64,000 nucleotides of DNA from Echinicola vietnamensis DSM 17526 (GTDB lineage Bacteria > Bacteroidota > Bacteroidia > Cytophagales > Cyclobacteriaceae), in assembly GCF_000325705.1 (NCBI RefSeq), contig NC_019904.1:5067501-5131500 (forward strand), written 5' to 3'. Under the pieces are notes generated by a model that was not told the DNA's origin, did no database searches, and worked only from the letters and a program-made list of their open reading frames with translations. The position numbers were made by a program, and so were the translations under genes. Positions 1 to 64,000 of this stretch are shown here, one piece after another (position 1 is the stretch's first letter; each line of letters begins with the position of its first letter).

Positions 1-646
1 ATAGGGTAGGCCTTCCCGGCTGTGCGGGTTCGGCAGGCAAGGCACGCTCGGCCATCCGCAGATCTTCCAAGATAAACGCGTATACTTGATCCGCATTGGC
101 TTTGGGCACATCCCTTTCCTCCATGTTTTCTTCGGTCCTGAGCGGCACCCCTCCCCAGTTACGGACCAGGTCAAAATAGGTCAATGCCCTTAAAAACCGG
201 GCTTCACCCAAAAAGCGGTCGCGCACTTCCTGTGCCACTTGCTCACTTTGGGGGACATGGAAAATCACCAGGTTGGCATTTCTGATCCCTTCGTAAAACA
301 TGGTCCAGCGACTGGCGGCGGTGTTGATGTTGGTGGCATTCAACCCGTCGAAATCATTGTATTGGGCCCTGCTTCCCCGCCCGTATCCCCAATCGGTATG
401 GGCGCTCAGAACGGCCACTTGTTCGGAACGTACATTGCGCAGCGGATTATAAATGGCATTCGTGGCCGCTTCGATATCTGCTGCGGACTGGTAAAAGTTT
501 TCCGCCACCACGGTCTTGGGCGTTTCTTCCAGCAAATCGCTGCACCCTACCAGTACGGTAAATGCCCACAGGATCATCGGTGCCCTGCCAGCAAATCGGA
601 AAGGCCTTTGGCATAAATTTCGGGAAATGATATGATCGGTATTCAT
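1..646 (-). CDS. SusD/RagB-like outer-membrane glycan-binding lipoprotein, N-terminal part
   Basis: The reading frame starts at the ATG at 646 and stays open to the window edge, giving about 215 residues of a protein whose family is usually 450-600 residues long. It begins with a short basic stretch and a hydrophobic run ending VLVGC, a lipobox, so it should be a surface lipoprotein. The motif GIRNANL and the helix FLGEARFLRALTYFDL are typical of SusD TPR-like cores. It lies 22 bp downstream of the susC gene, as expected for a SusC/SusD pair in which SusD captures glycan and delivers it to the SusC transporter. The C-terminal half and any linked enzymes lie beyond the left edge, so the substrate cannot be inferred. 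Confidence 0.93.
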   Translation of the reverse strand, partial: MNTDHIISRNLCQRPFRFAGRAPMILWAFTVLVGCSDLLEETPKTVVAENFYQSAADIEAATNAIYNPLRNVRSEQVAVLSAHTDWGYGRGSRAQYNDFDGLNATNINTAASRWTMFYEGIRNANLVIFHVPQSEQVAQEVRDRFLGEARFLRALTYFDLVRNWGGVPLRTEENMEERDVPKANADQVYAFILEDLRMAERALPAEPAQPGRPTL

Positions 647-53112: not shown

Positions 53113-53616
53113 CTATTCAGTATTTGACAAAAGTCCATCCAAGTTTGACAATGCCATTTCATAGCCTTCTTTAAAACCCATTTCGATCATATTGTCAAGA
53201 TCAGTAATGCTCCCGTGCCGAAGCGTGGTAGCCACTGTGGTGGTTCCGTTATCTTCTGTAAAAACGATTGTCCAAAAAGAATTTGGTTTTCCGGAAGTAT
53301 CATTGCCCTCTTCATCACAAAAGGCGTCCAGCCAGGAAATGGATTTTAACGGTTTAATAATCTTGTAATCCGCCTTACACCAGTCCTTTTTATTTTCAGG
53401 ACTTACCATCGCATAAAGCCACCGTCCACCTTCTTTAAAATCCAGCGATTTGGTCTCAATATGATAGGGTTTGGGTGCCCACCATTTGTCGAGCAGTTCC
53501 GGATCGCTCCAGGCCTGCCATACTTTTTTAAGATCGGCATCGAACTTACGTTTGATATGAATACTATTGTTTGCCCTGTTAACCGAAAGGTCCAATGAAG
53601 CATGGTTATTCATCAT
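53113..53616 (-). CDS. SRPBCC (AHSA1-like) protein, cassette 1
   Basis: A 167-residue START-like helix-grip protein of the activator-of-Hsp90-ATPase-1-like family. It shows [58 protein letters not shown], then [14 protein letters not shown] and a C-terminal helix [21 protein letters not shown]. The fold binds hydrophobic ligands in a deep cavity; the natural ligand is unknown. The start overlaps the end of the ArsR gene by 11 bp, so translation is coupled. Its closest relative in the window is the N-terminal half of the fusion protein at 59087-60049. Confidence 0.92.
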
Positions 53617-53929
53617 TATTCTTTTTTATGGTTGCTAATACATCGTCCAATTGATTGAACCTGGTTTCCCAAATTTTTCGAAATTGTTCTAACCACTGGT
53701 CGATCTCTTTCATTTTTTCTACCTCAAGTTCATAGAAGACCTCCCGTCCTGAATGTTCTTTTTTCACCACTTCACACTCCTGCAAAATCCGTAAATGTTT
53801 CGATACGGCCTGCCTGGAGACATCAAAATGCTCGGCAATGGCGTTGGGCGTAAGTGCCTGAATGGCTATCAGGACTATTATTGCCCTTCGGGTAGGATCG
53901 GCTATGGCCTGAAATATATCTCTTCTCAT
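53606..53929 (-). CDS. ArsR-type winged-helix repressor, cassette 1
   Basis: A 107-residue protein starting [21 protein letters not shown]. The recognition helix is in [21 protein letters not shown], and the wing [20 protein letters not shown] follows, the usual ArsR layout. No metal-site cysteines are present, so it should sense something other than a metal, possibly the ligand of the SRPBCC partner. It lies first in the cassette, directly downstream of a predicted promoter with two 16-bp repeats, and probably represses its own operon. Related repressors head cassettes 2 and 3. Confidence 0.93.
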
Positions 53930-53942
53930 CCCACTACTTTAA

Positions 53943-53989
53943 GAAACCTTTTGGTTGCAAATACATACGCAACCTTTCGGTTTCACAAA
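53943..53989 (-). promoter_or_regulatory. Promoter and operator of ArsR cassette 1
   Basis: Two 16-bp sites, GAAACCTTTTGGTTGC (53943-53958) and GCAACCTTTCGGTTTC (53969-53984), are separated by 10 bp and are complementary to each other at their ends. On the minus strand TTTG (53986-53989), a 20-bp spacer and TGTATTTG (53958-53965) fit the Bacteroidota -33/-7 promoter with one change. The sites overlap both elements, as expected for repression. Confidence 0.72.
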
Positions 53990-54111
53990 TATTCGCCGAT
54001 AATTTTCCGACCGATCCATACCATAGGATTTAAAAATTGGATGGTAAAAGCTGGCCAGGAATTTGAAACGGGAATCGGTCCCCTTATGTACGGTAGGGCA
54101 ATCAATACCTT

Positions 54112-54339
54112 TTAATCATCAATTAGCTCAATTTGGACTTCTTTCTCATTTCCAAAAGCGATAACCCCTGATACATCAATTTCCCCACGGCTTTCCACGC
54201 GCAACACCTTATCACCATCTTCCAAGTCAATATTGATAAGGTAATCTGAATACATCAGATTTAGCTCAGATACTATTGTACGGGCTAAGTGTTCATCGCA
54301 AATGTTTGTTTTAAAAATTTCGACCATCGATGGTGTCAC
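54112..54339 (-). CDS. Small HMA-like protein without cysteines
   Basis: A 75-residue protein, more likely starting at the Met before VEIFKTNICDEHLARTIVSELNLM. The order strand-helix-strand-strand-helix-strand with NIDLEDGDKVLRVESRGEIDVSGVIAFG resembles the ferredoxin-like heavy-metal-associated fold, but no CxxC is present. It is the last gene of cassette 2 and a clear paralogue of the protein at 57426, which closes cassette 3. Its role is unknown; the shared LEDxDxxLRVExR block is the best diagnostic. Confidence 0.75.
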   Translation of the reverse strand: MTPSMVEIFKTNICDEHLARTIVSELNLMYSDYLINIDLEDGDKVLRVESRGEIDVSGVIAFGNEKEVQIELIDD

Positions 54340-54363
54340 AATTAAAATAAATTTGAAATTGGG

Positions 54364-54963
54364 TTATCGCTCGTTATATCCTTTTCCTTCTAATATTTTA
54401 GAAAAGGTCTTTTCAATTCTTGAAAACCGGGTTTTCGATTGTTTGGCCTGAGAGAGGTAGAATAAATAACCTCTTTGTCTCCCAGGTGTTAGGTTGTAAA
54501 AAGCAGTTTCTAATTCAGGATAATTTTTAAAAGCCTCTTCAAGTTCAGTAGGCACTTCATATTCCGAAGTCTTTTTCCACTCCACCTTTAAGCCTGACTT
54601 TTCGGCTTCTATGGTTTCAAAAACATAAGTCTTGACAACGGATTTTAAATCGATGATTTCCTTGGCGCTCGTAAACCGTATTTGACGTGCCGATTGTACA
54701 TTTTCAGTTTGTTGGACCAAAATATTTTCGGTATCATCCAGCAAAACCCCTTTATGGAAAAGCAAGGCACAATAGTCTTTGAAGCCGTGTATGAGCACGA
54801 TATTTTTACCGTTGTGGGTGTAACAGGGATGCATCCATTTAAAATCTTCTTCAAGCCCACATTCCAAACAGACCTCTCGCAACAAGAGGGTCTCTTCTTT
54901 CCAGTTTTTTATCTTTTCTATGTATTGGTCAACTTTTTCCATCCAAGAATTATTTAATTTCAC
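54364..54963 (-). CDS. YdeI/OmpD-associated family protein
   Basis: A 199-residue protein. The first half is a DUF1801-like fold (MEKVDQYIEKIKNWKEETLLLREVCLECGLEEDFKWMHPCYTHNGKNIVLIHGFKDYCALLFHKGVLLDD). The C-terminal segment ELEEAFKNYPELETAFYNLTPGRQRGYLFYLSQAKQSKTRFSRIEK is the OmdA/YdeI signature. Relatives are linked to bacteriocin or peptide tolerance by annotation, without a known reaction. It overlaps the next gene upstream by 4 bp, in cassette 2. Confidence 0.9.
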   Translation of the reverse strand: MKLNNSWMEKVDQYIEKIKNWKEETLLLREVCLECGLEEDFKWMHPCYTHNGKNIVLIHGFKDYCALLFHKGVLLDDTENILVQQTENVQSARQIRFTSAKEIIDLKSVVKTYVFETIEAEKSGLKVEWKKTSEYEVPTELEEAFKNYPELETAFYNLTPGRQRGYLFYLSQAKQSKTRFSRIEKTFSKILEGKGYNER

Positions 54964-55313
54964 AATACGTTTAACGCTTCATTTAGTGAGCTTTGAAAAC
55001 GCACCTGCCTTCCTTGGTTACTTTCATAAATAAAATCATTTAGGCTCTTGCTAGAATATATTGAAAAATCCCCTATGATAATTAATGGCAGTTGATACTG
55101 GGCAAATTTTTGAAGAATATCGCCTGCTAGTTTGGTCTTTAAATCAAAAAAGTCTGCAGTAATATTTTTTTGGTATAAGATCAGTTTATCAAAACCTTGG
55201 TAATAGATGTTCCCCATTAAGTCTATAGCATCTTCAAGGTTTTGAATTATAATTTCATTGGAAATGACCTCTGCTACTTTAATACCCTTAAGTGAATGTT
55301 CTATTATTTCCAT
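54960..55313 (-). CDS. DUF4180 family protein
   Basis: A 117-residue protein of the DUF4180 family: IKVAEVISNEIIIQNLEDAIDLMGNIYYQGFDKLILYQKNITADFFDLKTKLAGDILQKFAQYQLPLIIIGDF, then SNQGRQVRFQSSLNEAL. The layout is STAS-like, alternating strands and helices. Function is unknown. It overlaps the YdeI-like gene by 4 bp and follows the DUF1801 gene by 9 bp, inside cassette 2. Confidence 0.88.
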   Translation of the reverse strand: MEIIEHSLKGIKVAEVISNEIIIQNLEDAIDLMGNIYYQGFDKLILYQKNITADFFDLKTKLAGDILQKFAQYQLPLIIIGDFSIYSSKSLNDFIYESNQGRQVRFQSSLNEALNVL

Positions 55314-55322
55314 TCGATGCTG

Positions 55323-55679
55323 TTATAATTCGTTAAGCTTTGATTGATCTTTTATCAGTTGTTTAATCTCGGAAGAAGGAACCTCTTGGCCAAACTTAAT
55401 TTGAATGGTTTTCTTCCCTGTTTTGTATCCCTTTGCTTCCAGGGTTTTCCGCACTTCATCCGACAGGGAATCAATACCAAAACTCACGTGATTCTTTGCC
55501 AAAGAAAATCCGGCAAGAATGCCATTATAATTGTAGATAGGCACGTTCCATTTGATACCCCCCGCTGCCTTTGGTTCTGTAGTTTCGATCAGTTCCCTGA
55601 GCTTAAGCATTATTTCCTTGGCAACTGCTGGTGATCTATCGATAAACTCATCTACTGTCCTGGGCTTGATTTCTTTCAT
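55323..55679 (-). CDS. DUF1801 (YdhG-like) protein
   Basis: A 118-residue protein with TVDEFIDRSPAVAKEIMLKLRELIETTEPKAAGGIKWNVPIYNYNGILAGFSLAKNHVSFGI, the DUF1801 core, and a helical end with a basic segment (KTIQIKFGQEVPSSEIKQLIKDQ). The fold is a small alpha/beta sandwich of unknown activity, often beside ArsR and SRPBCC genes. It overlaps the DoxX gene by 4 bp and is cotranscribed. Confidence 0.9.
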   Translation of the reverse strand: MKEIKPRTVDEFIDRSPAVAKEIMLKLRELIETTEPKAAGGIKWNVPIYNYNGILAGFSLAKNHVSFGIDSLSDEVRKTLEAKGYKTGKKTIQIKFGQEVPSSEIKQLIKDQSKLNEL

Positions 55680-56059
55680 TTTTTGGGCATTGTTAATTTT
55701 CTAGGCTCTGGCCTGAAACACCAGGAAACAACTGTCAATACAATAAGCAAACCAGGGCCAAAGAGTGTAGTGGTATCATCTCCAATTATCAAGTGTGAGG
55801 CCATAGCTCCAGTCATCACAAAGAAAAAACCTGCATACGCCCATTCTTTTAACAATGGATATTTTGGAATAAGAATGGCGGTTACGCCTAAAATTTTCCA
55901 AACGCCCAGAATGGTCAATAAATAACCCGGATAACCTAAGTGCTGCATACTCGCAACTTCTTCCTCCATTTTTATCAATTGGACAATTCCCGTGGACAAC
56001 ATCCCCAAGGACAGCCAGACCGTAGCTATCCAGTAAATAATTTTGTCTCGTTTTTTCAT
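55676..56059 (-). CDS. DoxX-like four-helix membrane protein, cassette 2
   Basis: A 127-residue protein with four membrane helices and the DoxX-like motif pattern: GIVQLIKMEEEVASMQHLGYPGYLLTILGVWKILGVTAILIPKYPLLKEWAYAGFFFVMTGAMASHLI. It is related to the DoxX protein of cassette 3 (58701). DoxX-like proteins sit in the inner membrane and are linked to oxidative or thiol stress in some bacteria. It lies 6 bp after the SRPBCC gene of the cassette. Confidence 0.92.
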   Translation of the reverse strand: MKKRDKIIYWIATVWLSLGMLSTGIVQLIKMEEEVASMQHLGYPGYLLTILGVWKILGVTAILIPKYPLLKEWAYAGFFFVMTGAMASHLIIGDDTTTLFGPGLLIVLTVVSWCFRPEPRKLTMPKK

Positions 56060-56065
56060 AACAAG

Positions 56066-56530
56066 TTATTTTACGTCCGTTAGAATTTCCTCCAGTTTAT
56101 CGTGAGCCCTATTCAAGCCATAAGCAAATGGGAGTTTTAGTTGCTCGGCTCGGTGTTTTTCGGATTTGTAGACAATCTGAATCGTTAATTTGCTTTTATC
56201 ATGGGAAACCTTTTCAAAATGTAGAAACTCCAATTGTACGCCCATCGCCATACCTTCCATTTCAAAGGTTCGAACGATTTCCTGGTCAGGAATCACCTTA
56301 TGAATAGTGCCATTGGCCTTAAACATTACCTGCCCTTCGTGCGAGGTTTCAAAGGCATAACTTCCATGATTTCTGTTTTCCAGCTTTAAAACTGTTGTAC
56401 CCATCCACTGAGCAACAAATTCCGCCTCCGTGTAAGCTTTGTATACCAGCACTACCGGAAGGTCAAAGTCCCTTATAATGGTTAGCTCTTGTTTGCCTTC
56501 AGGGGCATTCACTTTTGTTTTTTGTACCAT
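56066..56530 (-). CDS. SRPBCC (AHSA1-like) protein, cassette 2
   Basis: A 154-residue helix-grip protein beginning MVQKTKVNAPEGKQELTIIRDFDLPVVLVYKAYTEAEFVAQWMGTTVLKLENRNHGSYAFETSHEGQVMFKANGTIHKVIPDQEIVRTFEMEG. The AQWM...HGSY/F pattern differs from cassette 1, so the two are distant paralogues and may bind different ligands. It follows the ArsR gene by 9 bp. Confidence 0.9.
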   Translation of the reverse strand: MVQKTKVNAPEGKQELTIIRDFDLPVVLVYKAYTEAEFVAQWMGTTVLKLENRNHGSYAFETSHEGQVMFKANGTIHKVIPDQEIVRTFEMEGMAMGVQLEFLHFEKVSHDKSKLTIQIVYKSEKHRAEQLKLPFAYGLNRAHDKLEEILTDVK

Positions 56531-56539
56531 AGTTTGTTT

Positions 56540-56860
56540 TTATTTAGACAGGTGTTTTTGCATTACGGCTTCCAGGGCATTAAAGCGATCATCCCACATT
56601 TTTCTAAAAGGCTCGATAAAATCAGCTATTTGCTTCATCCCCACCGGGTTAAGTTTGTAGTAAATCTCCCTTCCTTTTTGCTCCTGTTCCAATATTTCAC
56701 ACTCTGTCAGGATTTGAATGTGCTTTGAAATGGTTTGCCTGGAATAATCGAAATGCCCTGCAATGGCTCCCGGTGTCATTGTGCTTGCCGCCACCATGGT
56801 AATTATGGCCCTCCTCGTGGGATCTGCAATGGCTTGAAATACGTCTCTTCTTAACTTCAT
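56540..56860 (-). CDS. ArsR-type winged-helix repressor, cassette 2
   Basis: A 106-residue repressor: [86 protein letters not shown] take the start at 56860 because the predicted -7 element (56879-56886) would otherwise fall inside the gene and because the paralogues start MKLRRD/MRRD. The divergent DUF1330 gene begins 112 bp away, so it may be under the same control. Confidence 0.92.
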
Positions 56861-56863
56861 TAC

Positions 56864-56910
56864 GCAGTTATTTGACTGCAAATATAAATGCAGTTATTTA
56901 GTTGCGCAAA
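56864..56910 (-). promoter_or_regulatory. Promoter and operator of ArsR cassette 2
   Basis: Two 16-bp sites, GCAGTTATTTGACTGC (56864-56879) and GCAGTTATTTAGTTGC (56890-56905), are separated by 10 bp. The first has perfect 5-bp palindromic ends. On the minus strand TTTG (56907-56910), a 20-bp spacer and TATATTTG (56879-56886) make a full-consensus promoter. Confidence 0.8.
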
Positions 56911-56972
56911 TTTTCTTAATATGATATTTTAGAACGATCGATTAAATTAGCTCTATAAAAACCAACAGGGTC

Positions 56973-57401
56973 ATGAAAAAGTATATTGACGCTACACCGG
57001 ATTCAGGCAAGCAGTTTTATCAAAGCTTTAACGGAAAGGGAGAAATCACAATGCTTAACTTGTTGAAGTTCAAGGAAAAAGCTGATTATTCAGACATGGC
57101 GCACTTGAGACCAGAACAAGAAATAAGTGGTGAAGAAGCTTATCAATTATATCTTGACAGTACTTTGCCACCACTACAAGAAGCAGGGAGCGAGATTCTC
57201 TATTTCGGTAAAGGAAGAGATTTTTTAATTGGTCCGGAAACCGAAAAGTGGGATGCCATTTTGTTGGTGAAGCATCAATCTGTAAAGAAGTTTATGGAAT
57301 TTGCCCAAAACGAAGATTATTTAAAGCATGCTGGCCATCGAACGGCTGCACTTGAAGATTCCCGACTTTTGCCAACTACTGAAGTGAAAAACGAACTCTA
57401 G
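56973..57401 (+). CDS. DUF1330-like protein
   Basis: A 142-residue protein on the plus strand, opposite to its neighbours: ITMLNLLKFKEKADYSD, EISGEEAYQLYLDSTLPPLQEAGSEILYFGKGRDFLIGPETEKWDAILLVKHQSVKKFMEFAQNEDYLKHAGHRTAALEDSRLLPT. This is the ferredoxin-like DUF1330 pattern. It starts 112 bp from the ArsR gene of cassette 2 and could be controlled by the same repressor. Enzymatic function unknown. Confidence 0.87.
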   Translation: MKKYIDATPDSGKQFYQSFNGKGEITMLNLLKFKEKADYSDMAHLRPEQEISGEEAYQLYLDSTLPPLQEAGSEILYFGKGRDFLIGPETEKWDAILLVKHQSVKKFMEFAQNEDYLKHAGHRTAALEDSRLLPTTEVKNEL

Positions 57402-57425
57402 CCAGGTAGCTCCATGCCAGCTTTA

Positions 57426-57683
57426 TTAAGGTATCAAGCTTACTTCTATTCCATTGCATTTACCAAAATTAAGAATACCTGATATGTCAATAGCATGGCG
57501 ACCCTCAACTCTTAAAATCCTATCACAATCTTCCAAATCTAAATTGATACGATAGTTTGGATGCAGCTGTTTGAGGTCGCTAACTATTTTGTTGGCCAAC
57601 TGTTGATTACCGACATTCGTTTTGAATATCTCAATGCAGTTAGGAGGATCATTTAATTGCTCATTCATTCTCGTTTTCTTCAA
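57426..57683 (-). CDS. Small HMA-like protein without CxxC (paralogue of 54112)
   Basis: An 85-residue protein: CIEIFKTNVGNQQLANKIVSDLKQLHPNYRINLDLEDCDRILRVEGRHAIDISGILNFG. It shares with the protein at 54112 the IFKTN start, INxDLEDxDxxLRVExR centre and DxSGxxxFG end. The ferredoxin-like topology without the CxxC makes a copper chaperone role unlikely. It overlaps the cupin gene by 23 bp at its start. A shorter form may start at the internal Met before NEQLNDPPN. Confidence 0.75.
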   Translation of the reverse strand: MKKTRMNEQLNDPPNCIEIFKTNVGNQQLANKIVSDLKQLHPNYRINLDLEDCDRILRVEGRHAIDISGILNFGKCNGIEVSLIP

Positions 57684-58065
57684 ACCATTTTACTATGGAT
57701 GGCATGTTTCGCTCAAACCCTCCAGGAATAAAGAAATTAAGCACTCCACATTTTTCATCTGTGCGGTTAGCAAAGTCGTGAATGGTTTTGGCAGGAATCC
57801 TTAGAAAGGCACCTTTTTCAATATCAATCCATTTTACGCCTACCAGTATAGACGTAGTACCTTCAATACCATAAAATATTTCATCATTTTCTTCGTGCTG
57901 ATGCGCTCCTGGTCCTTCTGAATTTGGTTCGAGCCACCACTCAGAAATGCTATACTTATTAGAAGTTTCATCTTCATCTGCCTTGAAAACAGCGGTCATT
58001 GTACCCATTTTGTAGGTTCTACCTTCATTGGTTTTTAGGACAATTGGTTCGTCTTTTTCTTTCAT
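57661..58065 (-). CDS. Cupin-domain protein
   Basis: A 134-residue cupin: SISEWWLEPNSEGPGAHQHEENDEIFYGIEGTTSILVGVKWIDIEKGAFLRIPAKTIHDFANRTDEKCGVLNFFIPGGFE. The H-x-H-x-x-x-x-E motif (HQHEENDE) and the later His (IPAKTIHDF) form a metal site, so it may be a dioxygenase-like or ligand-binding cupin. It belongs to cassette 3, 21 bp after the NTF2-like gene. Confidence 0.92.
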   Translation of the reverse strand: MKEKDEPIVLKTNEGRTYKMGTMTAVFKADEDETSNKYSISEWWLEPNSEGPGAHQHEENDEIFYGIEGTTSILVGVKWIDIEKGAFLRIPAKTIHDFANRTDEKCGVLNFFIPGGFERNMPSIVKWFEENENE

Positions 58066-58086
58066 TCTAGATTTTCAATTATGACA

Positions 58087-58464
58087 TTATACTTCTATGC
58101 AATAGGATGTGATGGCCTTGACCTTTTCACCTTTCGTACTCTGGAAAACATAAAAATCTGAGAAGGCATATTGATTCCCGTTTTCCATTGTCATTAGTCC
58201 GTTTACGGCACCTTCTTTACCGTGAGATAGGATTTGGTTCAATATCAATTCGGTAACTTTTGTAGACTGCATTTTTTCTAGCTCCTCCTTAAAAGCTTCA
58301 TTTCCTTCGATTTTCTTATCGCCAATGATGTCCCACACAATGTCTTGGGCTACATTATCCGTTAGAAAGCCGACATTGCCTTCAGCAAAGGCTATGTTAA
58401 ATTGTCTTAAGAATTCCATTTTGGGCGAATTGCCACAATTAGGACTGGATATTATTTTGGTCAT
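58087..58464 (-). CDS. NTF2/SnoaL-like protein
   Basis: A 125-residue protein with the cone-shaped NTF2-like fold: MEFLRQFNIAFAEGNVGFLTDNVAQDIVWDIIGDKKIEGNEAFKEELEKMQ and VNGLMTMENGNQYAFSDFYVFQSTKGEKVKAITSYCIEV. Such proteins bind or isomerise small hydrophobic molecules. It lies 18 bp after the DUF4287 gene in cassette 3. Catalytic residues cannot be assigned. Confidence 0.88.
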   Translation of the reverse strand: MTKIISSPNCGNSPKMEFLRQFNIAFAEGNVGFLTDNVAQDIVWDIIGDKKIEGNEAFKEELEKMQSTKVTELILNQILSHGKEGAVNGLMTMENGNQYAFSDFYVFQSTKGEKVKAITSYCIEV

Positions 58465-58482
58465 CTGAAAAGGATTAAAGTG

Positions 58483-58695
58483 CTATTCCCGTTTTCCTTT
58501 AAGGTAGGCATACATGGCCATGGCGTGTCCATGACCCAATTCAAATTCTTCTTTCAACCAAGTGGTTACTTCGGTAGCTTTTACAACTAACTCCCCGTTT
58601 TTTGTGAAGGCTTTTTCTTCTGCAAGGTTCTGGAAGTCTTGGGCTTTTTTGCCTGTTTTTTCTTCTATGTTCGTAATGTACGTTTGGAATGACAT
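58483..58695 (-). CDS. DUF4287 protein
   Basis: A 70-residue protein matching DUF4287: MSFQTYITNIEEKTGKKAQDFQNLAEEKAFTKNGELVVKATEVTTWLKEEFELGHGHAMAMYAYLKGK. The conserved block is the WLKEEFxLGHGHAMA segment with its two His. Function unknown. It lies 5 bp after the DoxX-like gene, in cassette 3. Confidence 0.92.
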   Translation of the reverse strand: MSFQTYITNIEEKTGKKAQDFQNLAEEKAFTKNGELVVKATEVTTWLKEEFELGHGHAMAMYAYLKGKRE

Positions 58696-58700
58696 ATTTA

Positions 58701-59081
58701 TTAGTTTATAGATTGAAGTTTGATTTTTTGTGAGTAGCTATACGATATCCCCAACACAATGCCTACCACAATGGGCATTGCAATATTTGCCATTACTTGG
58801 TCAACCGCCATATGACTTATGGTTGCAAAAATTAAATTGAAGGATAAGCCCGCATAAGCCCACTCTCTTAGTTTAACAGGAAGCTTTGGAAGCATTATTG
58901 CGCTTGCTCCTAATATCTTGCAAACAATTAAAGTATAGGCAAAGTAGTCAGGATAGCCCAGGGGTTTGGTTCCCGCGTTGAAATATTCATGTGCAAATAG
59001 GAGCGTTGCCAATGGCATTAACGCTTCCATGACGAAAATGACTGAAGTCGCTATCCAGAATATGGTTTTATACTTCTTCAT
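58701..59081 (-). CDS. DoxX-like four-helix membrane protein, cassette 3
   Basis: A 126-residue protein with four membrane helices, related to the DoxX protein at 55676: MKKYKTIFWIATSVIFVMEALMPLATLLFAHEYFNAGTKPLGYPDYFAYTLIVCKILGASAIMLPKLPVKLREWAYAGLSFNLIFATISH. The REWAYAG-F block is shared with cassette 2. It follows the SRPBCC-VOC gene by 5 bp. Confidence 0.92.
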   Translation of the reverse strand: MKKYKTIFWIATSVIFVMEALMPLATLLFAHEYFNAGTKPLGYPDYFAYTLIVCKILGASAIMLPKLPVKLREWAYAGLSFNLIFATISHMAVDQVMANIAMPIVVGIVLGISYSYSQKIKLQSIN

Positions 59082-59086
59082 AGCAG

Positions 59087-60049
59087 CTATTTGTTTTGAT
59101 AATTAATCATCCAGTTGATTCCGAATTTATCTGTACAACTCCCATAATATGCACCCCAAAACGTATCTTCGATAGGCATTTCTATTTGTCCACCTTCAGA
59201 AAGAGCATCAAAAAGACGCTTTGCCTCCACTCTCGATTCTGGTTCTAGATTAAGGTGCATGTTGTTACCTGGCTTTACAGTCATCCCAAATTCTTTAGGA
59301 GCATCAGTACCCATTAAAATATGACCACCAAGTATGGGAAGTTCTACGTGCAACACCATTTTTTTGACCGATTCGTCCATTGGAGGATGACTATGGTCAG
59401 CCGGTACTTCGTCAAAGCGTTTAATGCCATTGATGAAATCAGATTTAAAAACTTGTTTGTAATAGCGAAAGGCTTCTTCTGTATTGCCTGGAAAGTTTAA
59501 ATAGCTAGATACACGTGCCTTATTATTCGGTTTGTTTTGTTTACGTAATTTGAATTGTGATTCAATGTATTGATCTAAGTTTTCAAGCCCTGCAGTAAAG
59601 CCTTCTTTGAAGCCCATTTCTATGATGGTCTCCAGATCTTCCAATTGATCAAACTGAATGTTGATTTCCACCAAAGCGGTATCGCCTTTGTCAATAAACT
59701 CGTTGTGCCATTTCACTCTCGGTTTGGTGCCACTTATCACGGCATTTTCATCACAGAAAGCATCCAGACCAGAAAAGCTCGTTAAAGGCACTATTTTTTC
59801 AAAATCAAACAAGCACCAATGTTGCTCACCTTGAGGCCCCGCCATGTAGTAATGCCATTGTCCTCCCTCGGTAAAGTTCATCGACTTGGTTACCGTTTTA
59901 TAAGGTTTTGGAGCCCACCATTGATCTAATATTTCAGGAGTAGTCCAGGCTTTCCAAACCATATCTTTTGGAGCGTTGAATGATCGTTCTACGTTAATTT
60001 GCTTGTTGTCTTTGTCAACGGTAAAGTTGAATAGAATTGCTTTGTTCAT
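59087..60049 (-). CDS. SRPBCC-VOC fusion protein, cassette 3
   Basis: A 320-residue protein made of two domains. The first, about residues 10-160, is AHSA1-like (INVERSFNAPKDMVWKAWTTPEILDQWWAPKPYKTVTKSMNFTEGGQWHYYMAGPQGEQ), closest to cassette 1. A short linker with NKPNNKARV follows. The second, about 178-318, is a PhnB/3-demethylubiquinone-methyltransferase-like VOC domain (SYLNFPGNTEEAFRYYKQVFKSDF, HVELPILGGHILMGTDAPKEFG, NLEPESRVEAKRLFDALSEGGQIEMPIEDTFWGAYYGSCTDKFGINWMINY). Its start overlaps the ArsR gene by 1 bp. In other genomes these domains are usually separate proteins, so the fusion indicates a joint role on one ligand. Confidence 0.92.
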   Translation of the reverse strand: MNKAILFNFTVDKDNKQINVERSFNAPKDMVWKAWTTPEILDQWWAPKPYKTVTKSMNFTEGGQWHYYMAGPQGEQHWCLFDFEKIVPLTSFSGLDAFCDENAVISGTKPRVKWHNEFIDKGDTALVEINIQFDQLEDLETIIEMGFKEGFTAGLENLDQYIESQFKLRKQNKPNNKARVSSYLNFPGNTEEAFRYYKQVFKSDFINGIKRFDEVPADHSHPPMDESVKKMVLHVELPILGGHILMGTDAPKEFGMTVKPGNNMHLNLEPESRVEAKRLFDALSEGGQIEMPIEDTFWGAYYGSCTDKFGINWMINYQNK

Positions 60050-60372
60050 TATTGTTTGTTTTTGAGTTTTTCTAATACGTTATCTAATTGGTTAAATCGA
60101 TCTTCCCAAATGGCTCTAAACTGCTCTAACCATTTATCGATTTCCTTCATTTTATCAACTTTTAACACGTAGTATATTTCTCTTCCTTGTTGATTTGCTT
60201 CCACCAAATCACATTCATTTAATATTTGAATATGCTTAGAAATGGTAGGTCTTGCTGCATCAAAATTTTCTGCAATGGCACCAGCTGTCATAGCTTGTGT
60301 GGTAAGCAATACCAGTATTCCACGTCTTGTTGGGTCGGAAATGGCTTGAAAAATATCACGTCTTAATTTCAT
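60049..60372 (-). CDS. ArsR-type winged-helix repressor, cassette 3
   Basis: A 107-residue repressor: [103 protein letters not shown]. It is closer to the cassette 1 and 2 repressors than to metal-sensing ArsR proteins and lacks Cys in the sensing positions. Its gene overlaps the fusion gene by 1 bp. The promoter just upstream has two 16-bp sites. Confidence 0.93.
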
Positions 60373-60377
60373 TATAT

Positions 60378-60424
60378 GAAGTTATTTGGCTACAAATATA
60401 TATGAAGCCATTTGACTACATAAA
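60378..60424 (-). promoter_or_regulatory. Promoter and operator of ArsR cassette 3
   Basis: Two 16-bp sites, GAAGTTATTTGGCTAC (60378-60393) and GAAGCCATTTGACTAC (60404-60419), are separated by 10 bp. On the minus strand TTTA (60421-60424), a 20-bp spacer and TATATTTG (60393-60400) form the promoter. Spacing is the same as in cassettes 1 and 2, although the base sequence differs. Confidence 0.78.
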
Positions 60425-60601: not shown

Positions 60602-61558
60602 TAGAGGTGACCGTTTAATTTCATATATTTATGCTTTTAAACAAGCAGATAATGGATGTTTTCAAAGGACAAGAGCTTATAGAGTTCAGTAGAAGGTTCC
60701 AGACCGAGTTGGATTGTAAGAAATATTTGTCCGAACTTAAGTGGAAAGATGGATTTACGTGTCGCAAGTGTGGTCATCAGGGTAGCCAGATCAGAAAGGA
60801 TTACGCACGTACCTGCAATAAATGTAGCGATACAGAAAGTGCTGGCGCAGGCACCCTTTTCCATAAAGTCAAATTTGGTCTTGTAAAGGCATTTTATATC
60901 TGTTTTGAGATGAGCACAAGTACCAAAAGTCTCTCTGCGATGTATATGGCCAAACGGTATGGCATTAACCGTAAAACAGCCATGAGCTTCATGCATAAAG
61001 TACGTGAGGCCATGAAATCGAGCGGAAATCATCCGATGAAGGGAGAAGTTCATGTGGACGAATTCGTAGTAGGGGGCCAAGAAGCCGGACATACCGGAAG
61101 GAGCTATGGAGGTAAGAAAAAGAAGGTAGTATGCGCGGTAGAACTTACTGATGCAGGAAAAGTCAAACGGTTTTATGCTTTACAGATCAAGGATTTTTCA
61201 GCCAAATCACTACGTCCCATCTTTGAGAGCCACATCGACAGGGGTGCCCAAGTTCAGACAGACGAATGGAAAGGGTATCGTCCTATCAAAAATGACTTTA
61301 CCATCAAACAGACTCCCAGTGAATTAGGCTTAAATTTTAAAGCAATTCACACCATGATCCATCAGGTAAAATCGTGGTTAAGGACGACGTTTTCCTGGGT
61401 AAGCAAAAGGCATATAGACCGCTACCTAAGTGAGTTTTCCTACAGAATCAACCGCTCACAGAGCAAGGACACGATCTTCCACAATTTGATCACCAGAATG
61501 GTCAGTAAGAAAAAAATCCATATTGCTGACTTAATATGATATTAACTGGTCACCTCTA
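60602..61558 (+). mobile_element. IS1595 family insertion sequence with 8-bp target duplication
   Basis: The element is 957 bp, bounded by the inverted repeat TAGAGGTGACC at 60602-60612 and its complement GGTCACCTCTA at 61548-61558. The direct repeat TAAGTCTT occurs at 60594-60601 and 61559-61566, an 8-bp target duplication as known for IS1595. It carries one intact transposase gene. It landed in the 3' end of the leftward S41 peptidase gene. Confidence 0.95.
60631..61539 (+). CDS. IS1595 family transposase
   Basis: A 302-residue transposase. A zinc ribbon occupies about residues 46-73 (TCRKCGHQG ... RTCNKCSDTES). The DDE-like core follows: GEVHVDEFVVGGQEAGHTGRSYGGKKKKVVCAVEL (first Asp), RGAQVQTDEWKGYRPI (second Asp), then IHTMIHQVKSWLRTTFSWVSKRHIDRYLSEFSYRINR. 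It may start at the Met at residue 8 (60652). No frameshift is seen, so it should be active. Confidence 0.95.
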   Translation: MLLNKQIMDVFKGQELIEFSRRFQTELDCKKYLSELKWKDGFTCRKCGHQGSQIRKDYARTCNKCSDTESAGAGTLFHKVKFGLVKAFYICFEMSTSTKSLSAMYMAKRYGINRKTAMSFMHKVREAMKSSGNHPMKGEVHVDEFVVGGQEAGHTGRSYGGKKKKVVCAVELTDAGKVKRFYALQIKDFSAKSLRPIFESHIDRGAQVQTDEWKGYRPIKNDFTIKQTPSELGLNFKAIHTMIHQVKSWLRTTFSWVSKRHIDRYLSEFSYRINRSQSKDTIFHNLITRMVSKKKIHIADLI

Positions 61559-63413: not shown

Positions 63414-63437
63414 AGCTTTGTGGAAAAAGCAAAAGTG

Positions 63438-63725
63438 ATGAACCTACAAGAAGAAATGGCCGCCCTTGTCAAAGAGTACAAGAGCAGCGGTCTGACGCAG
63501 AAATCCTTCAGTGCGCGAAAGGGGATCGGTTATCCCAAGTTCAATTATTGGTACCGAAAGCTGGCGGGGGAACAGGTCCGGGAACCCACTGGTTTTCTAC
63601 CGGTCCGTACCCAGGGCAGCAGTGTTCCTGCAGAGGCGGTGGAAGTGGTGTACCCGAACGGGGTAAAGCTGCGGGTGCCGTCCGAGGACCTATCGCTGTT
63701 GTCCAACCTGATCAGGCTGTACTGA
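63438..63725 (+). CDS. IS66 accessory protein TnpA-like
   Basis: A protein of about 95 residues from the ATG at 63438 (a GTG at 63420 gives six more). It has an N-terminal helix-turn-helix, LVKEYKSSGLTQKSFSARKGIGYPKFNYWYRKLAGE, followed by a C-terminal segment GFLPVRTQGSSVPAEAVEVVYPNGVKLRVPSEDLSLLSNLIRLY, as in the first gene of IS66 elements. The stop TGA overlaps the ATG of the next gene. Confidence 0.88.
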   Translation: MNLQEEMAALVKEYKSSGLTQKSFSARKGIGYPKFNYWYRKLAGEQVREPTGFLPVRTQGSSVPAEAVEVVYPNGVKLRVPSEDLSLLSNLIRLY

Positions 63726-64000
63726 TGTTTTCGCTGGGCTCCCACCACCAATATTTCCTGTACCGCAGCCCGGTTGACATGCGCAAAGGGTTCAACGGGC
63801 TTTCCGGGATCGTCACCAATGAACTGGACCGTGACCCGGTCTCCGGGGAAGTGTTCGTCTTTGTCAACCGCCACCGCAACCTGATCAAACTCCTGCACTG
63901 GGAGAAGGGCGGTTTCGTGGTCTATTACAAACGATTGGAAAAAGGCACTTTCCTGCTCCCGGAGGACAGGGGTGACGGCGTGCTGGATTGGCCCGAACTG
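63725..64000 (+). CDS. IS66 TnpB (Orf2), partial
   Basis: The first 92 residues of TnpB: YFLYRSPVDMRKGFNGLSGIVTNELDRDPVSGEVFVFVNRHRNLIKLLHWEKGGFVVYYKRLEKGTF. These match the IS66 Orf2 family start to end; only a short tail is missing beyond the window. It is translationally coupled to TnpA. TnpB is needed for IS66 movement in studied elements, but its biochemical role is unclear. Confidence 0.93.
   Translation, partial: MFSLGSHHQYFLYRSPVDMRKGFNGLSGIVTNELDRDPVSGEVFVFVNRHRNLIKLLHWEKGGFVVYYKRLEKGTFLLPEDRGDGVLDWPEL

What the first reader, a model, noticed from the sequence alone, without database searches (positions are those of the whole stretch)
53943..60424. Identical promoter/operator geometry in front of all three ArsR genes
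Each ArsR gene is preceded by two 16-bp sites spaced exactly 10 bp apart (53943-53984, 56864-56905, 60378-60419). The sites overlap a -33 element (TTTG, TTTG, TTTA), a 20-bp spacer and a -7 element (TGTATTTG, TATATTTG, TATATTTG). The geometry is kept while bases in the sites changed between cassettes (GGTTGC, ACTGC, GCTAC ends), as expected if each repressor and its operator coevolved after duplication to avoid cross-talk.
Basis: partly seen in the sequence, partly recalled or inferred. Interest (0 to 1): 0.8.

Follow-up and report, generated by a model that had tools for sequence, protein, structure and literature searches.

The report
Repressor helix spells its operator
Each of these three small bacterial repressors sits behind its own pair of DNA docking sites, and across hundreds of relatives three amino acids in the protein predict three letters of those sites, which suggests a simple address code for telling sister repressors apart.

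Summary
Each arsR gene is preceded by two 16-bp inverted repeats 10 bp apart at the stated coordinates, around a Bacteroidota TTTG-20-TAnnTTTG promoter. 0 of 117 control windows beat all their shuffles. A fourth copy lies elsewhere in the genome.

The geometry belongs to a family: 282 of 344 scored rows have such a pair, 225 with a 10-bp gap. The main new result is a recognition code. Half-sites read G-b2-A-b4-b5, and three helix-4 residues track three bases: Q/P with C/T at b2, A/T with A/G at b4, K/Q with pyrimidine/G at b5. The rule, noted, held in a set fetched afterwards, in named genomes (no b5 = G class there), and for an unseen combination P-T-Q. Leu reading G at b5 was added later. 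A blind scan of 106 protein columns ranked these three residues first.

Cross-talk avoidance is only suggestive; ArsR3 and the fourth copy share one address. Binding is untested.

The parts
53943..53958 (-). P1 downstream operator site, GCAACCAAAAGGTTTC on the - strand; predicted to span -5 to +11
   Evidence: class QAK, code expects GCAAC (GAAAC common at outer halves)
53969..53984 (-). P1 upstream operator site, GAAACCGAAAGGTTGC
53958..53965 (-). P1 -7 element TGTATTTG (5 of 6 TAnnTTTG positions)
   Evidence: -7 position in the family; consensus PMC6847099 (passages read)
53986..53989 (-). P1 -33 element TTTG, 20 bp upstream of the -7
   Evidence: family spacing
53606..53929 (-). arsR1, ArsR/SmtB-type repressor, helix S-R-Q-A-V-S-K-H
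53795..53815 (-). arsR1 codons for R39-H45, with code residues Q40, A41, K44
   Evidence: alignment; code
53113..53616 (-). AHSA1/SRPBCC protein, first gene after arsR1
   Evidence: PF08327
56864..56879 (-). P2 downstream operator site, GCAGTCAAATAACTGC
   Evidence: class QTK
56890..56905 (-). P2 upstream operator site, GCAACTAAATAACTGC; its left half has the ArsR1-type address GCAAC
56879..56886 (-). P2 -7 element TATATTTG
56907..56910 (-). P2 -33 element TTTG
56540..56860 (-). arsR2, helix S-R-Q-T-I-S-K-H; the ATG at 56860 is preferred to the TTG at 56881 listed by the ORF listing because it aligns with relatives
56720..56740 (-). arsR2 codons for R41-H47, with code residues Q42, T43, K46
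   Evidence: alignment; code
56066..56530 (-). AHSA1/SRPBCC protein after arsR2
   Evidence: PF08327
55676..56059 (-). DoxX_2 membrane protein downstream in cassette 2
   Evidence: PF13564
60378..60393 (-). P3 downstream operator site, GTAGCCAAATAACTTC
   Evidence: class PTK
60404..60419 (-). P3 upstream operator site, GTAGTCAAATGGCTTC
60393..60400 (-). P3 -7 element TATATTTG
60421..60424 (-). P3 -33 element TTTA
60049..60372 (-). arsR3, helix A-R-P-T-I-S-K-H
   Evidence: helix 4 = residues 41-53 in the model
60232..60252 (-). arsR3 codons for R41-H47, with code residues P42, T43, K46
59087..60049 (-). AHSA1 domain fused to a 3-demethylubiquinone/PhnB-like domain, after arsR3
   Evidence: PF08327 and PF06983
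58701..59081 (-). DoxX_2 membrane protein downstream in cassette 3
   Evidence: PF13564

Best explanation
Each ArsR protein most likely represses its own operon (arsR, AHSA1/SRPBCC gene, in two cassettes a DoxX gene) by binding two 16-bp palindromes, one dimer each. With the -7 element at -12 to -5, the upstream site spans about -31 to -16, inside the -33/-7 spacer, and the downstream site spans about -5 to +11, over the start of transcription; bound repressor would exclude RNA polymerase. Specificity is carried by helix 4: an invariant Arg goes with an invariant G1, and the residues 1, 2 and 5 places after it specify half-site bases 2, 4 and 5. Q with C (A tolerated), P with T (A tolerated), A with A, T with G, K with pyrimidine, Q or L with G. 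The three cassettes carry three different pre-existing addresses (QAK, QTK, PTK). Shown here: the site geometry, the covariation, its prediction of later data, and operon linkage. Inferred: binding, repression, start sites, individual contacts, and release by an unknown ligand. The 26-bp centre spacing is about 2.5 turns, so the two dimers probably sit on opposite faces of the DNA (inference).
For: Geometry: 282 of 344 scored rows (own four included) have a pair beating all 60 shuffles, gap 10 bp in 225; control 0 of 117. Promoter lock: -7 starts 19 bp into the pair in 143 of 150 pairs with a 10-bp gap. Code, held-out set (half-sites): Q: C137 A27 T0; P: T136 A8 C0; A: A189 of 192; T: G110 of 112; K: C/T 277 of 280; Q: G14 of 16; L (not in the written rule): G8 of 8. 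Third set: Q: C115 A41 T0; P: T91 A24 G1 C0; A: A120 of 120; T: G120 of 120; K: C/T 270 of 272; no X3 = Q or L there. Blind scan of 106 columns over 203 operators, discovery rows included: top column for b2, b4, b5 was X1, X2, X3 (0.84, 0.82, 0.71; runners-up 0.27, 0.69, 0.34). Tree without helix columns: concordant rows 277 of 279, 280 of 282, 280 of 280; changes protein/operator 9/10, 4/6, 7/7. Unseen combination P-T-Q in 2 rows reads GTAGG in 5 of 8 halves and GTAGT in 3. In 3 divergent gene pairs with different addresses each gene has its own address beside it. AHSA1 gene downstream in 255 of 280 rows with room. Model: code residues are 2nd, 3rd and 6th of helix 4.
Against: Nothing shows binding, repression or start sites. 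62 of 344 scored rows lack a pair above the threshold; some show one good palindrome (L195, L196, L199, L201-L203), others none. b2 = A occurs with both Q (104 of 608) and P (58 of 508) half-sites, so the code is not fully discriminating at b2. All four rows with P-A-V-A-K-H that have a pair read mainly A and never T at b2, so a fourth residue matters. X2 = S reads mostly A but also G and C. On well-supported branches alone only 4, 2 and 3 independent changes exist, too few for significance trait by trait. For b4 another column (31) correlates nearly as well (0.69). In one search a row counted as b4 = G with 3 of 4 half-sites; the bar was 2 of 4 (179 of 180 concordant there). The picker misassigned 3 of 5 X1 = Q rows.
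Confidence: 0.85

Rival explanations
1. Shared ancestry only: the operator and the helix are simply inherited together in a few clades, and the residue-base correlation carries no specificity meaning.
For: Few changes on starred branches (4, 2, 3); for b4 only 4 protein changes in the whole tree.
Against: The best-correlated column out of 106 is a helix residue for each of three bases, each time a different one. Helix-free tree: operator changes accompany 9, 4 and 7 protein changes. Combinations are factorial (Q/P by A/T by K/R or Q/L: seven of eight seen, QT with Q/L not), and P-T-Q gave GTAGG in 5 of 8 half-sites as predicted.
Confidence: 0.08
2. Recent local duplication followed by divergence of repressor and operator to avoid cross-talk.
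For: Three similar cassettes lie within about 7.3 kb with three different addresses; same-address pairs are fewer than expected in 23 genomes.
Against: Tree distances 0.86-1.35 among the three against 0.11-0.25 to nearest relatives in other genomes; ArsR3 is 91% identical to a Tamlana protein. With divergence matched the deficit shrinks to 11 against 16.9 +/- 3.6. ArsR3 and the fourth copy share an address.
Confidence: 0.07
3. Deliberate cross-regulation: mixed half-sites let one repressor act on another's promoter (for example ArsR1 on P2).
For: ArsR2's upstream site has one GCAAC half, and one relative (L009) has a whole GCAAC palindrome beside a GCAGT one. Among rows with a pair, 5 of 16 half-sites have b4 = A in the Y-S-R-Q-T group against 3 of 92 in the S group.
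Against: Only 4 genes with a pair (5 with L010, which is below the bar); a Tyr-dependent relaxation at b4 explains it as well; whether the genome of L009 has a QAK repressor was not checked.
Confidence: 0.1
4. The repeats serve another factor or an RNA structure, not ArsR.
For: No binding data.
Against: Sites co-vary with ArsR helix residues and lie immediately upstream of arsR in distant genomes; in divergent pairs each gene keeps its own address.
Confidence: 0.03

Closest known systems
ArsR/SmtB repressors with solved DNA complexes or DNA studies (NolR 4OMY/4ON0, RexT)
   Same: Winged helix dimer, base contacts from helix 4. NolR residues 16-102 align to model residues 1-87 with 87 aligned, so without gaps, which puts the invariant Arg41 on NolR Gln56, described as making base-specific contacts (PMC8960804, passages read).
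   Different: NolR's motif is (A/T)TTAG-N9-A(T/A) and RexT's ATTCG-N15-CGAAT (same passages); here two GnAnn palindromes flank the -7 element, and specificity varies by class.
SdpR-type autorepressors (NCBIfam NF033789)
   Same: Best or second-best NCBIfam match of all three proteins.
   Different: Scores 72-89 are below the family cut-off of 100; the partner gene here is AHSA1, not SdpI (SdpI recalled).
Residue-base correlation studies of IclR, GntR, MerR and LacI families
   Same: Same kind of inference. In IclR, tandem sites and correlated helix residues are reported (PMC8222616: abstract and one section read). The others (PMC4494728, PMC5045206, PMC4052901) were seen in search listings only.
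   Different: Not ArsR; IclR tandem centres are 18-22 nt apart, here mostly 26; here one residue tracks one base, and a later-found combination was predicted.
Paralogous ArsR1/ArsR2 of Pseudomonas putida (PMC7994332)
   Same: Paralogous ArsR repressors and their promoters in one genome (title and start of abstract seen).
   Different: Arsenic-sensing ars operons whose title describes a joint 'bifan motif'; not this AHSA1-linked group.

Membership tests
ArsR/SmtB superfamily | Family profile above curated cut-off | tested here: met
   PF01022 40.4/28.2/39.7 bits (cut-off 22) and NF033788 76.4/71.4/74.4 (cut-off 55)
ArsR/SmtB superfamily | Winged helix fold | tested here: met
ArsR metal sensors | Cys-x-Cys type metal motif in helix 3 | tested here: not met
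   Each of the three proteins has one Cys, just after helix 4 (sequences); motif definition recalled. Filed as ArsR-fold, not as metal sensor.
SdpR subfamily (NF033789) | Score above cut-off 100 | tested here: not met
   72.4, 74.4, 89.4 bits
Bacteroidota primary sigma promoter | TAnnTTTG -7 with TTTG about 20 bp upstream | tested here: met
   Window sequence: -7 5/6, 6/6, 6/6; -33 4/4, 4/4, 3/4. Family. Consensus PMC6847099 passages, which also say that a -33 motif is much less evident than the -7 in F. johnsoniae
ArsR autorepressor | Protein binds its own promoter | not testable with these tools
   needs gel shift or footprint

The most novel reading that the evidence does not exclude
A phylum-wide, composable address code: one recognition residue per operator base in an ArsR autorepressor family, with unseen combinations predictable, and genomes tending to hold one repressor per address (in G102 eight operator-bearing copies of which only one pair shares an address), so that sister repressors work as naturally orthogonal switches.
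Probability: 0.55. Interest if true: 0.75.

Novelty: new variant of a known kind. Interest (0 to 1): 0.62.

Why it matters
Hundreds of Bacteroidota ArsR-AHSA1 operons would become readable: the operator can be predicted from the protein. It offers a clean natural system for how repressor specificity evolves, and ready-made candidates for orthogonal repressor-promoter pairs in a phylum with its own promoter type. The test is direct: a few purified proteins and short DNA probes.

Tried and rejected
Recent duplication of the cluster: rejected on tree distances. A wider regulon: in 464 kb of the own genome (20 evenly spaced 20-kb stretches plus the window, part of one stretch masked) the only pairs with a 26-bp centre spacing scoring 35 or more in the visible, unmasked output were the three window promoters; about a dozen other pairs reached 35-37, all at other spacings. 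The middle of that output was cut because masked letters filled it, so a hit of score 40 in that one stretch could be hidden; the rest of the genome was not scanned. Members outside Bacteroidota: of 579 plasmid records with a match (40 listed) I fetched 8 loci; 2 have tandem 16-mers (Metabacillus, gap 10, with TATAAT in the gap; Phaeobacter, gap 9; 0 of 300 shuffles reach either) and 6 do not; in those two, b4 = A and b5 = C fit the code but b2/b3 differ. The combination QT with Q/L (predicted GCAGG) was looked for and not found among the 30 new rows. Literature: no ArsR recognition code and no ArsR-SRPBCC operator study appeared in the listings (held library only, subscription papers mostly missing; the lists were capped, 10 of 14, 10 of 21, 12 of 30 and 10 of 46 papers shown). 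The NolR structure paper is not held, so its contacts were read only through PMC8960804. Rows dropped: proteins without a pair above all 60 shuffles are left out of the code tables (62 of 344 scored; 3 of 30); duplicate loci were removed; and 75 rows with other residues at a code position were left out of that position's count. The 23 genomes were picked for having several copies.
Full report
WHAT IS THERE. The window is G000:C1:5067501-5131500 of a 5.6-Mb single contig. Its genus is most likely Echinicola, because contigs of same-genus genomes G001 and G008 have the lengths of E. salinicaeni and E. marina contigs (inference). On the minus strand lie three cassettes, each arsR followed by an AHSA1/SRPBCC gene; two of them also hold a DoxX gene. 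Each 16-mer is an inverted repeat, for example GCAGTCAAATAACTGC. The -33 element ends 1 bp outside the upstream site; the -7 element lies in the gap and ends on the first G of the downstream site. A fourth close paralog, 0.7 Mb away, has the same layout: GTAGCCAAATAGCTAC-10-GTAGTCAAATGGCTAC.

IS IT MORE THAN CHANCE. The pair-finder rewards palindromy, likeness of the two sites, G at position 1 and A at position 3, and leaves bases 2, 4 and 5 free apart from symmetry and likeness. The three pairs score 41, 39 and 35 against shuffle means of 26.9-28.8; 0, 0 and 13 of 1500 shuffles reach them; 0 of 117 control windows beat all 60 of their shuffles. Across the family 282 of 344 scored upstream regions do (own four included); the gap is 10 bp in 225, 8 in 18, 12 in 12, 9 in 9, 11 in 8, 14 in 7, other in 3. 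So '10 bp' is the rule, not a law.

PROMOTER LOCK. In 143 of 150 pairs with a 10-bp gap the -7 element begins 19 bp after the start of site 1; TTTG 20 bp upstream matches 4 of 4 in 88 and 3 of 4 in 36 of them. In nine pairs with a 12-bp gap the -7 stays 19 bp from site 1; in fifteen pairs with 8- or 9-bp gaps it stays fixed to site 2. In Flavobacterium johnsoniae the -7 element runs from -12 to -5 (PMC6847099, passages read). On that scale site 1 covers -31 to -16 and site 2 covers -5 to +11, and the predicted starts are 53953, 56874 and 60388, giving leaders of 24, 14 and 16 nt (inference).

THE CODE. From the first 116 rows (113 of the family, own four included) I wrote down a rule: in helix x-R-X1-X2-(I/V)-S-X3-H, X1 Q/P goes with half-site base 2 C/T, X2 T or A/S with base 4 G or A, X3 K or Q with base 5 pyrimidine or G. 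I then fetched 106 further rows, almost all from the wider class and phylum; 79 had a pair. Half-site counts there: Q: C137 A27 T0; P: T136 A8 C0; A: A189 C2 G1; T: G110 A2; S: A9 G3; K: C192 T85 A3; Q: G14 T2. Residues outside the written rule: X3 = L: G8; R: T5 C6 G1; X1 = A: A6 C2. A third set from named GTDB genomes (80 new rows, 68 with a pair): Q: C115 A41; P: T91 A24 G1; A: A120; S: A27 G5; T: G120; K: C173 T97 A2; it holds no X3 = Q or L, so base 5 = G was not tested there. Over 282 rows Q never reads T (0 of 608 half-sites) and P reads C once (1 of 508). The four half-sites of a pair are not independent; by rows the agreement is 277 of 279, 280 of 282 and 280 of 280.

CONTROLS. A blind scan of all 106 alignment columns against each base over 203 operators (discovery rows included), weighted for relatedness, put X1 first for base 2, X2 for base 4 and X3 for base 5. 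For base 4 the runner-up column 31 is close (0.69 against 0.82). On a quick tree built without the helix columns, the protein trait changes 9, 4 and 7 times and the operator 10, 6 and 7 times. Independent pairs on starred branches number 4, 2 and 3, with the operator going the same way in 3.9, 2.0 and 3.0 of them on average; each trait alone is too few for a significant sign test. For base 4 a row needed 3 of 4 half-sites and 2 of 4 in the earlier (179 of 180 concordant). Residue combinations are close to factorial, and P-T with Q, absent when the rule was written, appeared later with GTAGG in 5 of 8 half-sites and GTAGT in the other 3.

TESTS THAT LOOKED BAD FIRST. In a fourth set (30 new rows, 27 with a pair) 12 of 20 half-sites of X1 = Q proteins read T and 10 of 56 of X3 = K proteins read G. 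All of these come from three rows (L440, L441, L444) where a Q-A-K gene stands back to back with a P-A-Q gene and the picker took the neighbour's operator. Read in full, the shared region holds both addresses, GTAAG (in L441 partly GTAAC) beside the P-A-Q gene and GCAAC beside the Q-A-K gene; in L441 the latter has one site only. Without those three rows the set reads Q: C8; P: T72 A12; K: C43 T1; X3 = Q: G45 A1 C2; L: G4. Real exceptions remain: the four rows with P-A-V-A-K-H (S45 to Ala) that have a pair read A at base 2 in 14 of 16 halves and G in 2, never T, and X2 = S is loose. Some relatives have a single palindrome or none.

STRUCTURE. The ArsR3 model (pLDDT 90.8) puts helix 4 at residues 41-53, so the code residues are its 2nd, 3rd and 6th. 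NolR aligns with an offset of 15 (87 aligned, 1..87 on 16..102), placing Arg41 on NolR Gln56, a residue described as making base-specific contacts at the start of helix 4 (PMC8960804, passages read). Invariant Arg with invariant G1 is a natural match (inference). Centres 26 bp apart are about 2.5 turns, so dimers on opposite faces are likely (inference).

PROMOTER ASYMMETRY. In Q-A-K promoters with a 10-bp gap, base 2 is A at the outer halves in 45 and 42 of 88, but at the inner halves in 3 and 0 of 88. The halves facing the -7 element are thus under tighter constraint.

CROSS-TALK. In 23 genomes picked for several copies (87 paralogs with an operator) same-address pairs are 11 of 151 against 22.5 expected by shuffling, P 0.001. 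Orthology alone can cause this, so I matched for divergence: 11 against 16.9 (sd 3.6) by protein address and 6 against 14.9 by operator address; the pairs are not independent, and the operator measure counts A and C at base 2 as different. Avoidance is suggestive, not shown. In the own genome ArsR3 and the fourth copy are the most alike of the 151 same-genome pairs (0.71) and share GTAGY. ArsR2's upstream site carries one GCAAC half; among rows with a pair, 5 of 16 half-sites in the Y-S-R-Q-T group have base 4 = A against 3 of 92 in the S group.

ORIGIN OF THE CLUSTER. Nearest relatives: ArsR2 a gene in another genome of the same genus (L009, 84% identical), ArsR1 a gene of another genus in the family (L075), ArsR3 genes of Tamlana and Zobellia (91 and 89% identical). 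The three are far from each other (0.86-1.35). The cluster looks assembled from old lineages, perhaps partly by transfer; transposase-like genes lie just beyond it (60631-61539 and 63420 onward, by the look of the sequences).

VERDICT. A true, well-spotted observation, with a stronger result behind it: a three-residue, three-base recognition code in ArsR-AHSA1 autorepressor operons. It is a new variant of a known kind, as similar correlation work exists for other families (PMC8222616 abstract and one section read; others seen in listings). The biochemistry is untested.

Noticed in passing
60631-61539: ORF that looks like an IS1595-type transposase (zinc-ribbon start, DDE-like middle; recalled, no family search run), beside the promoter of cassette 3.
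   Followed up: no
63420-64000: Two ORFs that look like IS66 accessory genes (recalled), at the window's end.
   Followed up: no
54112-54339 and 57426-57683: Two similar small ORFs (75 and 85 aa), one near cassette 1 and one near cassette 2; the first has no Pfam match, the second was not searched. They suggest shared cargo between cassettes.
   Followed up: no
arsR1 C52, arsR3 C54: A single Cys just after helix 4 is invariant in all 20 aligned relatives; a possible sensing residue.
   Followed up: no
59087-60049: AHSA1 domain fused to a PhnB/3-demethylubiquinone-like domain in cassette 3 only.
   Followed up: no
L412 upstream of the arsR-type gene: Metabacillus plasmid relative with two identical 16-mers (GACACCAATTAGTGTC), again 10 bp apart, with TATAAT in the gap: the same geometry on a different promoter type.
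   Followed up: partly
L440, L441, L444: Back-to-back arsR genes with two different addresses sharing one intergenic region, each address beside its own gene.
   Followed up: yes
L009: Relative of ArsR2 whose upstream site is wholly of the GCAAC type and downstream site wholly GCAGT: possible dual control.
   Followed up: no
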